The translations under genes and the position numbers were made by a program. Shown piece after piece: positions 735-34,498 of a DNA stretch of 39,344 bases. Positions within the stretch are counted from its first letter, which is position 1; each line of letters starts with the position of its first letter. The DNA is taken from positions 1-39,344 of the forward strand of contig JAAZBP010000170.1 in assembly GCA_012513715.1 (NCBI GenBank), written 5' to 3'. The notes beneath the pieces are model-generated. The model saw only the letters and a program-made list of their open reading frames with translations. It made no database searches and was not told where the DNA came from. Source of the DNA: Thermoproteota archaeon. GTDB lineage: Archaea > Thermoproteota > Bathyarchaeia > Bathyarchaeales > Bathycorpusculaceae.

Positions 735-842
735 GCCGGGGTAGCCTAGCCTGGCTAGGGCGCCAGACTCATAATCTGGAGACAAATAGGGCCAAACGCC
801 TGTTGCCAGAAGTCGCGGGCTCGAATCCCGCTCCCGGCACCA
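735..842 (+). tRNA. elongator tRNA-Met (anticodon CAT), intron-containing, CCA encoded
   Basis: Acceptor GCCGGGG/TCCCGGC, anticodon arm CCAGA-CTCATAA-TCTGG, T arm GCGGG-CTCGAAT-CCCGC, 3' ACCA. There is a 30-nt excess in the variable region. Confidence 0.93.
782..811 (+). other. non-canonical archaeal tRNA intron in the variable loop (about position 45/46)
   Basis: Bulge-helix-bulge: CTGG pairs with CCAG (4 bp), with 3-nt bulges AG^A and AA^G. An inner helix CAA/TTG is present. Excision leaves the variable loop AGGTC. Confidence 0.82.
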
Positions 843-31906: not shown

Positions 31907-34498
31907 ATGGATTTGAATAATTTTACAATAAAAGCACAGGAAGCTATTCAAAAAGCTGCTGAAATTGCCACAGCCAAACAGAACCAATCTATCGATCCCT
32001 CACACATGTTAAAGGGAATATTGGTGGTTGATGAAAATGTGGTTCCTTATCTACTGCGAAAACTAAACGTTAACTTTGAATCCTTTTCAACATCACTTGA
32101 CCGAATAATAGATTCTTTACCTAAGGTTAGTGGTGGACAACAGTATTTTTCATCTAATTCTAATCGTGTTCTGCAGAAATCGTTGGAAATAGCTTCTAAA
32201 TTTAAGGATCAATTCATTTCTATCGAACATCTGTTACTGGGAATTTTAGCAATAGGCGATGCTACTTCAAGATTGCTTACAAGCAATGGTGTTACTGAAA
32301 AAGATCTAACGATAGCTATCAAGCAATTAAGGAAAGGCTCTACCGTAAATTCTCAAACTGCCGAAGAAACTTATAATGCCCTAAATAAATACGCATTAAA
32401 CTTGAACGATAGGGCAAGAATGGGCAAACTTGATCCTGTAATAGGCAGAGACGAGGAAATCCGTAGAGTTCTCCAAATTTTATCTCGTAGGACAAAAAAT
32501 AATCCAATTCTAATCGGCGAACCGGGTGTGGGAAAAACTGCAATCGCAGAGGGTATAGCTTATCGCATAATCAATGGGGATGTGCCTGATAATCTTAAGT
32601 CAAAACAAATCTTTTCACTAGACATGGGTTCCCTTATAGCAGGAGCAAAATATAAAGGCGAATTCGAAGAGCGCCTAAAAAGTGTAGTGAAGGAAGTTAT
32701 CTCAGCTGAAGGCGAAATAGTACTGTTCATAGACGAAATACATACCCTCGTAGGAGCGGGAGGTGGTGAAGGTGCAATGGATGCGGCTAACATCCTAAAA
32801 CCTGCGTTAGCTAAAGGTGATTTACGTGCAATAGGCGCTACGACTCTAAATGAATACCAGAAATATTTTGAAAAAGACAAAGCTCTTGAACGAAGGTTCC
32901 AGCCCGTTATGGTGAATGAACCTTCAACTTTGGATGCAATTTCAATTCTTCGAGGATTAAAAGAGCGTTACGAAGTATATCACCATGTAAGAATCACAGA
33001 TGAAGCAATAATAGCGGCAGTTGAGCTCTCTCAGAAATATATCTCCGATCGTTTTCTACCAGATAAGGCAATTGATTTAATCGACGAGGCAGCGGCTAAA
33101 CTTCGACTTGAAATTAATTCTGAACCTGAAGACTTAGAAAAAATAGATCGAAAGATACGCCAATTAGAAATAGAACGTGAAGCAATCAAACGTGAAAAAG
33201 ATGAAAGCAAACTTAAAGCACTCAACCAAGAAATTTCTAACCTAACTGAAGAACGCAATCAGATGCGCGCCAAATGGCACGCTGAAAAAGATTTGGTTGA
33301 AAAAATTCAGATTAAAAAGAACGAAATTGAGCAACTGAAGTTTGAACAAGATGTAGCAAATAGAGAAGGTGAACTAGGGAAAGTAGCTGAAATTCGCTAT
33401 GGCAAAATTCCTGAAGCAGAAAAAACTATCGAAACTCTAAAGCATAAACTCTTAGAGCTGCAGAAAGAATCTGCAATGGTTAATGAGCAAGTTGATGCTG
33501 AACAAATAGCTGAAGTAGTATCCCGCTGGACTGGGATACCCGTTAGTCGAATGTTACAAAGCGAGAAGCAAAAGTTGCTCAACATTGAAACAGAATTGCA
33601 TAAACGAGTTATAGGGCAAGACGAGGCAATCAGTGCAGTATCAGATGCCATTAGACGGAACCGTGCGGGTTTACAGGATCCCAAGCGTCCTATAGGTTCT
33701 TTCATCTTTTTGGGTACAACTGGTGTTGGAAAAACAGAATTAGCAAAGGCTCTGGCTGAATACTTATTTAACAACGAAAACAACATGGTGAGAATTGATA
33801 TGTCTGAATATCAGGAGCGCCATTCTGTTTCAAGACTGGTCGGTGCACCTCCAGGTTATGTTGGTTACGAGGAAAGTGGACAACTAACTGAGTCCATTAG
33901 AAGAAAACCCTACTCGGTTGTACTTCTGGACGAAATTGAAAAAGCTCATCCAGACGTTTTCAACATATTGCTTCAAGTACTAGATGATGGTAGGCTTACA
34001 GATAACAAGGGTCGAACGGTAGACTTCAAAAATACAATAATAATAATGACTTCCAACATCGGCTCACATATAATTCAAGAAAACCTAGAGAAAGTAACTG
34101 ACAAAAACCGTGGAGAAATATTGGAGCGAACAAAAACTCAGGTCTTCGAATTACTTAAGAAAACAATTAAACCAGAATTCCTAAACCGTATTGACGAGAT
34201 AATAATGTTCCAACCTTTAACACAGCCAGAAATACACAAAATAGTGAAGCTTCAATTAAATAACATTCAGAATACTCTATCAAAAAGCAATATAAGCCTC
34301 ACAGTCACAGAAAAAGCTGTAGCTTTGATTGCTCGTATCGGTTTTGACCCTCAATTCGGAGCTAGACCAATAAAACGTGTAATACAAAAGAAACTGCTAA
34401 ATGACTTATCAAAAATGATTTTAGAAGAAAAAGTTAGTAAAGACTCAGTTATTATCGTAGATGAAATTAACGGTGAATTAACGTTTAAAAATGAATGA
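31907..34498 (+). CDS. clpB: ATP-dependent disaggregase ClpB
   Basis: Two AAA+ modules ([34 protein letters not shown]), [20 protein letters not shown], coiled-coil M domain, [13 protein letters not shown]; 863 aa; RBS GAGGAGG before ATG. Confidence 0.96.

What the first reader, a model, noticed from the sequence alone, without database searches (positions are those of the whole stretch)
735..842. Elongator tRNA-Met carries a 30-nt non-canonical intron in the variable loop
The gene folds as a standard tRNA-Met(CAT) except for 30 extra nt between the anticodon stem and the T arm. The strand CTGG pairs with CCAG to give a 4-bp central helix. It is flanked by 3-nt bulges AGA and AAG and an inner CAA/TTG helix. 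Cutting after the second bulge nucleotide restores the variable loop AGGTC. CCAG competes with the anticodon stem for the same TCTGG strand, so splicing would have to precede or be coupled to folding.
Basis: partly seen in the sequence, partly recalled or inferred. Interest (0 to 1): 0.6.

Follow-up and report, generated by a model that had tools for sequence, protein, structure and literature searches.

The report
Spliced-out insert in archaeal methionine tRNA
The only elongator methionine tRNA gene found in this Bathyarchaeales genome carries a 30-base intron just after the anticodon stem, a known archaeal intron type conserved across its order, and related viruses and elements that integrate into this gene bring their own intron sets and so rewrite the gene's introns.

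Summary
Confirmed. Window 735-842 is an elongator tRNA-Met(CAT) with an extra 30 nt (782-811) between positions 45 and 46; removing it leaves a standard cloverleaf. The bulge-helix-bulge is real: among 92 distinct homologous introns, inner-helix pair 1 forms in 92 and pair 2 in 91 (shuffle maxima 57 and 68). The 45/46 intron occurs in 107 of 163 genomes of the order and in 0 of 94 others of the class; some sister lineages have a 37/38 intron instead. The genome encodes catalytic and structural EndA subunits, the former with the crenarchaea-specific-loop lysine, and RtcB; no second elongator tRNA-Met was found. The competing folds are nearly equal in energy. 45/46 is an already listed archaeal intron site, so the finding is a new, well-conserved member of a known kind. 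The less expected part lies outside the window: a provirus and an integrated element of Bathyarchaeota sit in this gene, recombine in the anticodon arm, and supply a 3' half with different introns (once three: 37/38, 45/46, 68/69). This is direct sequence support for a published but thinly documented model of tRNA intron exchange. No RNA data were available.

The parts
735..842 (+). elongator tRNA-Met(CAT) gene with encoded CCA
   Evidence: Rfam RF00005 54.4 bits; ARAGORN tRNA-Met(cat) after removal of 782-811
735..781 (+). exon 1 (tRNA positions 1-45)
   Evidence: sequence; homologues
770..772 (+). anticodon CAT
763..767 (+). CCAGA, 5' strand of the anticodon stem; the same 5 letters recur at the intron's 3' end (806-810)
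775..779 (+). TCTGG, contested strand: pairs with 763-767 in the mature tRNA or with 806-810 in the splice-site fold
776..779 (+). BHB central helix, 5' strand CTGG
   Evidence: pairs with 806-809
780..782 (+). 5' bulge AGA, predicted cut after 781
   Evidence: AGA or AGT in all homologues
782..811 (+). 30-nt intron at 45/46
783..785 (+). BHB inner helix, 5' strand CAA
   Evidence: covaries with 803-805
803..805 (+). BHB inner helix, 3' strand TTG
   Evidence: covaries with 783-785
806..809 (+). BHB central helix, 3' strand CCAG
   Evidence: CCAG in 91 of 92 introns
810..812 (+). 3' bulge AAG, predicted cut after 811
   Evidence: AAG, AGG or ATG in homologues
812..842 (+). exon 2 (tRNA positions 46 to CCA)

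Best explanation
This is the single functional elongator tRNA-Met gene of a Bathycorpusculum-like archaeon (Bathyarchaeales), interrupted by a 30-nt archaeal intron at 45/46. In the precursor the 3' strand of the anticodon stem pairs with CCAGA at the intron's 3' end, giving a relaxed (HBh') bulge-helix-bulge. A heterotetrameric EndA cuts after 781 and after 811, RtcB joins the ends, and only then can the anticodon stem form with its proper partner. Shown: the gene, the motif, its covariation, its conservation and the presence of the enzymes. Inferred: that the RNA is cut there, the order of folding and cutting, and the enzyme assignment.
For: Mature form is a standard tRNA-Met. 92 distinct homologous introns: inner pair 1 formed in 92/92 and pair 2 in 91/92 with several pair types, shuffle maxima 57 and 68, and lower counts when the partner is slid; central CTGG/CCAG in all but one. 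Conserved in 107 of 163 genomes of the order. Two EndA paralogues: catalytic subunit with Tyr-His-Lys and K38/K40 aligned with A. pernix K44/R46 (PMC12397907), structural subunit lacking the His. RtcB. No other elongator Met gene found. A second gene of the same genome, tRNA-Tyr (L034), reads as carrying introns at 30/31 and 37/38.
Against: No RNA evidence. The genome is a 91.7% complete assembly in 247 contigs, so a second elongator Met gene could be missing. The energy preference for the splice-site fold is small and not universal (36 of 57 homologues) and ignores tertiary contacts and proteins.
Confidence: 0.94

Rival explanations
1. The extra 30 nt are kept in the mature tRNA as an unusually long variable arm.
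For: The intron can form a small hairpin within a cloverleaf fold.
Against: The conserved pairing involves the anticodon-stem strand, not a free-standing arm; length varies from 21 to 41 nt while the splice-site register is kept; sister lineages lack the insert at 45/46 and have one at 37/38, which must be removed.
Confidence: 0.03
2. This copy is a pseudogene and another gene serves as elongator Met.
For: The assembly is incomplete.
Against: No other elongator Met gene in the genome; all arms pair and CCA is encoded; same intron architecture in complete and near-complete genomes of the order.
Confidence: 0.02
3. The intron is spliced, but from a normal cloverleaf that EndA opens, so there is no prior competition of folds. 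(A variant of the best explanation, concerning only the order of steps.)
For: The two folds are nearly equal in energy in most homologues and 21 of 57 slightly favour the cloverleaf.
Against: The intron sequence shifts the balance towards the splice-site fold in 46 of 57 cases relative to shuffled introns.
Confidence: 0.25

Closest known systems
Non-canonical archaeal tRNA introns at 45/46 (listed in PMC4090602; e.g. Caldiarchaeum tRNA-Thr(GGU), PMC3293823)
   Same: Same insertion point and BHB-type splice sites, in archaea rich in non-canonical tRNA introns.
   Different: Here in elongator tRNA-Met, conserved through most of one order, and using an intron copy of the 5' anticodon strand (CCAGA).
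Canonical 37/38 archaeal tRNA introns
   Same: Same enzyme and motif family; found in tRNA-Met of sister lineages.
   Different: At 37/38 the anticodon stem itself is the outer helix, so there is no competition with it.
Sugahara et al. 2012 model of tRNA intron gain by mobile elements (PMC3293823; reviewed in PMC8371274)
   Same: An attP that contains an intron recombines with a tRNA gene and the reconstituted gene inherits it.
   Different: There one element, a 5' fragment and a 24/25 intron; here a tailed provirus and a 10-kb element with both att sites read, att core in the anticodon arm, 3' halves exchanged, and up to three introns delivered at once.

Membership tests
Archaeal BHB-type tRNA intron, non-canonical position | Removal yields a standard tRNA | tested here: met
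   ARAGORN tRNA-Met(cat) on the spliced sequence, nothing on the unspliced
Archaeal BHB-type tRNA intron, non-canonical position | 4-bp central helix between two 3-nt bulges, cut after the second bulge base | tested here: met
   CTGG/CCAG, AGA and AAG; conserved in homologues
Archaeal BHB-type tRNA intron, non-canonical position | Inner helix supported by covariation | tested here: met
   92/92 and 91/92 for the first two pairs
Archaeal BHB-type tRNA intron, strict hBHBh' form | Contiguous outer helix beyond the central helix | tested here: not met
   No contiguous outer pairing; only a weak GACT/AGTC pairing across a 5-nt gap in the predicted fold; hence relaxed HBh' form
Archaeal BHB-type tRNA intron, non-canonical position | Broad-specificity EndA encoded | tested here: met
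   Two paralogues, catalytic one with the crenarchaea-specific-loop lysine; presence only, activity not tested
Archaeal BHB-type tRNA intron, non-canonical position | Spliced in vivo | not testable with these tools
   no RNA data
Mobile-element exchange of tRNA introns (Sugahara 2012 model) | Integrated element with attL and attR whose tRNA halves differ in introns | tested here: met
   G024 element and IMGVR_UViG_3300031463_000021; not at the window's own locus
Mobile-element exchange of tRNA introns (Sugahara 2012 model) | Element-borne tyrosine integrase next to the att site | tested here: met
   PF16795 1.8e-25 and 3.3e-25 for the viral ones, 8e-5 (below the Pfam cut-off) for G024; PHROG integrase 9.1e-41 and 1.1e-15

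The most novel reading that the evidence does not exclude
In Bathyarchaeales the introns of tRNA-Met behave as exchangeable att-site cargo: viruses and elements recombining in the anticodon arm replace everything 3' of it, so they add, remove or swap introns at 37/38, 45/46, the T loop and 68/69, and this traffic rather than slow drift explains the mixed intron positions in the order.
Probability: 0.5. Interest if true: 0.7.

Novelty: new member of a known kind. Interest (0 to 1): 0.48.

Why it matters
The intron itself extends a known class: a 45/46 intron fixed in an essential single-copy tRNA through most of an archaeal order, with strong covariation and two folds of nearly equal energy, so it is a clean substrate for asking whether splicing precedes folding. 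The surroundings matter more: attP, attL and attR sequences in which the tRNA halves carry different introns make the long-standing question of how archaeal tRNA introns move directly testable, and a tRNA finder that does not model such introns misses these genes (ARAGORN missed this one).

Tried and rejected
The five loci from the two-intron pattern in viral contigs (L262-L266) and L260 are chance or unrelated matches on reading. The idea that G024's gene is broken at the acceptor stem was dropped when a third intron at 68/69 restored it. Trans-splicing of the G024 3' fragment was considered and dropped because its leader does not pair with the 5' half (by eye). G003's two-intron gene was checked for an element and none was seen; it sits at the native locus beside the same genes as in the window. 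Split or permuted gene: excluded, the exons are in order within 108 nt. Of the integrase relatives in host genomes (most 41-48% identical), those beside a recognisable tRNA mostly sit next to other tRNA genes, not tRNA-Met.

Full report
What is there. Window 735-842 reads GCCGGGG...CCA. Rfam's tRNA model matches 735-839 at 54.4 bits with a long insert in the variable region, while ARAGORN finds no tRNA in the window. Without 782-811 ARAGORN reports tRNA-Met(cat) with all stems paired. The stretch between the anticodon stem and the T arm is AGACAAATAGGGCCAAACGCCTGTTGCCAGAAGTC; cutting after AG (781) and after CCAGAA (811) leaves AGGTC, i.e. an intron between positions 45 and 46. Shifting the cuts by one base gives a different loop, so the register is set by the motif.

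Which tRNA it is. A tRNA search of the same assembly (2.13 Mb, 247 contigs, 91.7% complete) gives an initiator tRNA-Met (L010), an Ile2-type CAT tRNA (L007) and this gene as the only elongator Met. Four other genes of the genome carry introns: Ser(CGA), Ser(GGA) and a Leu in the anticodon loop, and tRNA-Tyr (L034), which I read as having two introns, at 30/31 and 37/38 (the Tyr split is my reading of the sequence).

More than chance. Searching 100 relatives with the gene found it with the insert in most, and I extracted the loci. In 52 distinct inserts the central helix is CTGG/CCAG in all but one, with bulges AG[A/T] and A[A/G/T]G. Pooling all loci gives 92 distinct introns of 21-41 nt. Counting pairs in the register set by the splice sites, inner pair 1 is formed in 92/92 (CG, AT, GC, TA, GT types) and pair 2 in 91/92, against maxima of 57 and 68 in 2000 shuffles; sliding the partner lowers the counts. 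The central helix hardly varies because one strand is a tRNA exon.

Distribution. A pattern for the 45/46 form hits 107 of 257 genomes of the class, all in the window's own order (107 of 163) and none of the 94 genomes outside it. A 37/38 form is found in other members of the order and class, both introns together only in G003 and G024 (the third hit there, G127, is not a tRNA), and an intronless form is rare. These patterns demand exact matches and miss diverged genes. A scan of named genomes gives 90 hits, labelled Bathyarchaeota or Bathycorpusculum apart from a few termite-gut and other archaeal MAGs. Contig lengths tie several genomes of the window's genus to Candidatus Bathycorpusculum, order Bathyarchaeales in the NCBI taxonomy.

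Enzymes. The genome has two EndA-type proteins. One, 184 aa, matches S. tokodaii (2cv8, 3.8e-43) and the A. pernix catalytic subunit (3p1z_B, 5.3e-41), keeps the Tyr, His and Lys of the active site, and has K38 and K40 where A. pernix has K44 and R46 of the crenarchaea-specific loop; that loop is tied to cleavage of relaxed motifs (PMC6379350; PMC12397907). The other, 182 aa, lacks the His. RtcB is present. This fits an (alpha-beta)2 enzyme of broad specificity; it was not assayed.

Folding. The intron's 3' end (CCAGA) repeats the 5' strand of the anticodon stem, so TCTGG can pair with either. With acceptor and T stems fixed, the ensemble with the splice-site helix is 2.2 kcal/mol better than the one with the anticodon stem for this gene; over 57 distinct homologues the median difference is -0.41 kcal/mol, 36 favour the splice-site fold, and shuffling the intron interior moves the median to +1.59. 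So the two folds are close and the intron tilts the balance. That cutting must come before anticodon-stem formation is an inference. The motif lacks a contiguous outer helix, i.e. the relaxed HBh' form.

Mobile elements at this gene. In G024 (CAIUPH010000114) the tRNA-Met is followed by an integrase (PF16795, 8e-5, below the curated cut-off; PHROG integrase 1.1e-15) and, 10,217 bases on, by a 3' half of tRNA-Met; the two share the 19-bp anticodon arm CGCCAGACTCATAATCTGG. The 3' half at the far end has one intron (45/46). The reconstituted gene has three: 27 nt at 37/38, 33 nt at 45/46 and 30 nt at 68/69 in the acceptor stem (CGTC/GACG central helix, 8-bp inner helix); spliced, it is a 78-nt tRNA-Met by ARAGORN. 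All three lie 3' of the shared core, as expected if the element brought them. In IMGVR_UViG_3300031463_000021 a provirus with terminase and PF16795 integrase (1.8e-25) is bounded by an intact tRNA-Met with one 45/46 intron and by a 3' half with a different 45/46 intron plus a 20-nt T-loop intron; shared core 18 bp. There integration would have removed an intron from the working gene. Contig JAAKEZ010000031 of A05DMB-2 (L129) carries the viral flanks on both sides of a tRNA-Met 3' half, which I read as an attP; its 45/46 intron is identical to that of the chromosomal tRNA-Met of A05DMB-3. The window's own gene shows no such element: it is followed by an acyl-CoA-synthetase-like gene (888-2489) in the same neighbourhood as in G003.

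Known or new. 45/46 is a listed archaeal intron position (PMC4090602) and occurs in Caldiarchaeum tRNA-Thr (PMC3293823). Sugahara et al. proposed that an intron-bearing attP hands introns to tRNA genes, a proposal cited from that one case in a 2021 review (PMC8371274). I found no paper on tRNA introns in Bathyarchaeia, in a library that lacks most subscription journals. The finding is therefore a new member of a known kind; the element-borne intron sets are the part worth a specialist's attention.

Noticed in passing
L128 759-926 and 11002-11083 (G024:C114): Element-bounded tRNA-Met with three introns (37/38, 45/46, 68/69) and, 10.2 kb on, a 3' half with a single different intron; integrase between them.
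   Followed up: yes
L256 1-113 and L259 11506-11623 (IMGVR_UViG_3300031463_000021): Provirus whose attL and attR tRNA-Met halves differ in introns; attR also has a 20-nt T-loop intron.
   Followed up: yes
L129 19-96 (A05DMB-2) and L083 (A05DMB-3): Apparent viral attP carries a 45/46 intron identical to the chromosomal tRNA-Met of A05DMB-3, a genome of a different genus with the same isolate prefix.
   Followed up: partly
L109 (G076:C46): tRNA-Met that seems to have three introns: D loop, 45/46 and T arm.
   Followed up: partly
L108 / L240 (G003:C77): tRNA-Met with introns at both 37/38 and 45/46 at the native locus without an element; the two splice motifs need TCTGG in different pairings, so splicing would have to be sequential.
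   Followed up: partly
L241, L242 (G094:C1): Two complete tRNA-Met genes on one 1.87-Mb contig with near-identical upstream flanks (at least 100 nt) and 5' halves but different introns and downstream sequence.
   Followed up: partly
L034 61-211 (G000:C102): tRNA-Tyr of the window's genome appears to have two introns, 30/31 and 37/38.
   Followed up: partly
window 789-793 and homologous introns: GGGGC occurs in 42 of 92 introns and GGGC in 63 of 92, far above shuffles; the motif is also seen in 37/38 introns of sister lineages. Shared descent or a role; unexplained.
   Followed up: partly
window 31907-34498: ClpB-like ATPase, mainly a bacterial protein (from general knowledge), beside archaeal genes.
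   Followed up: no
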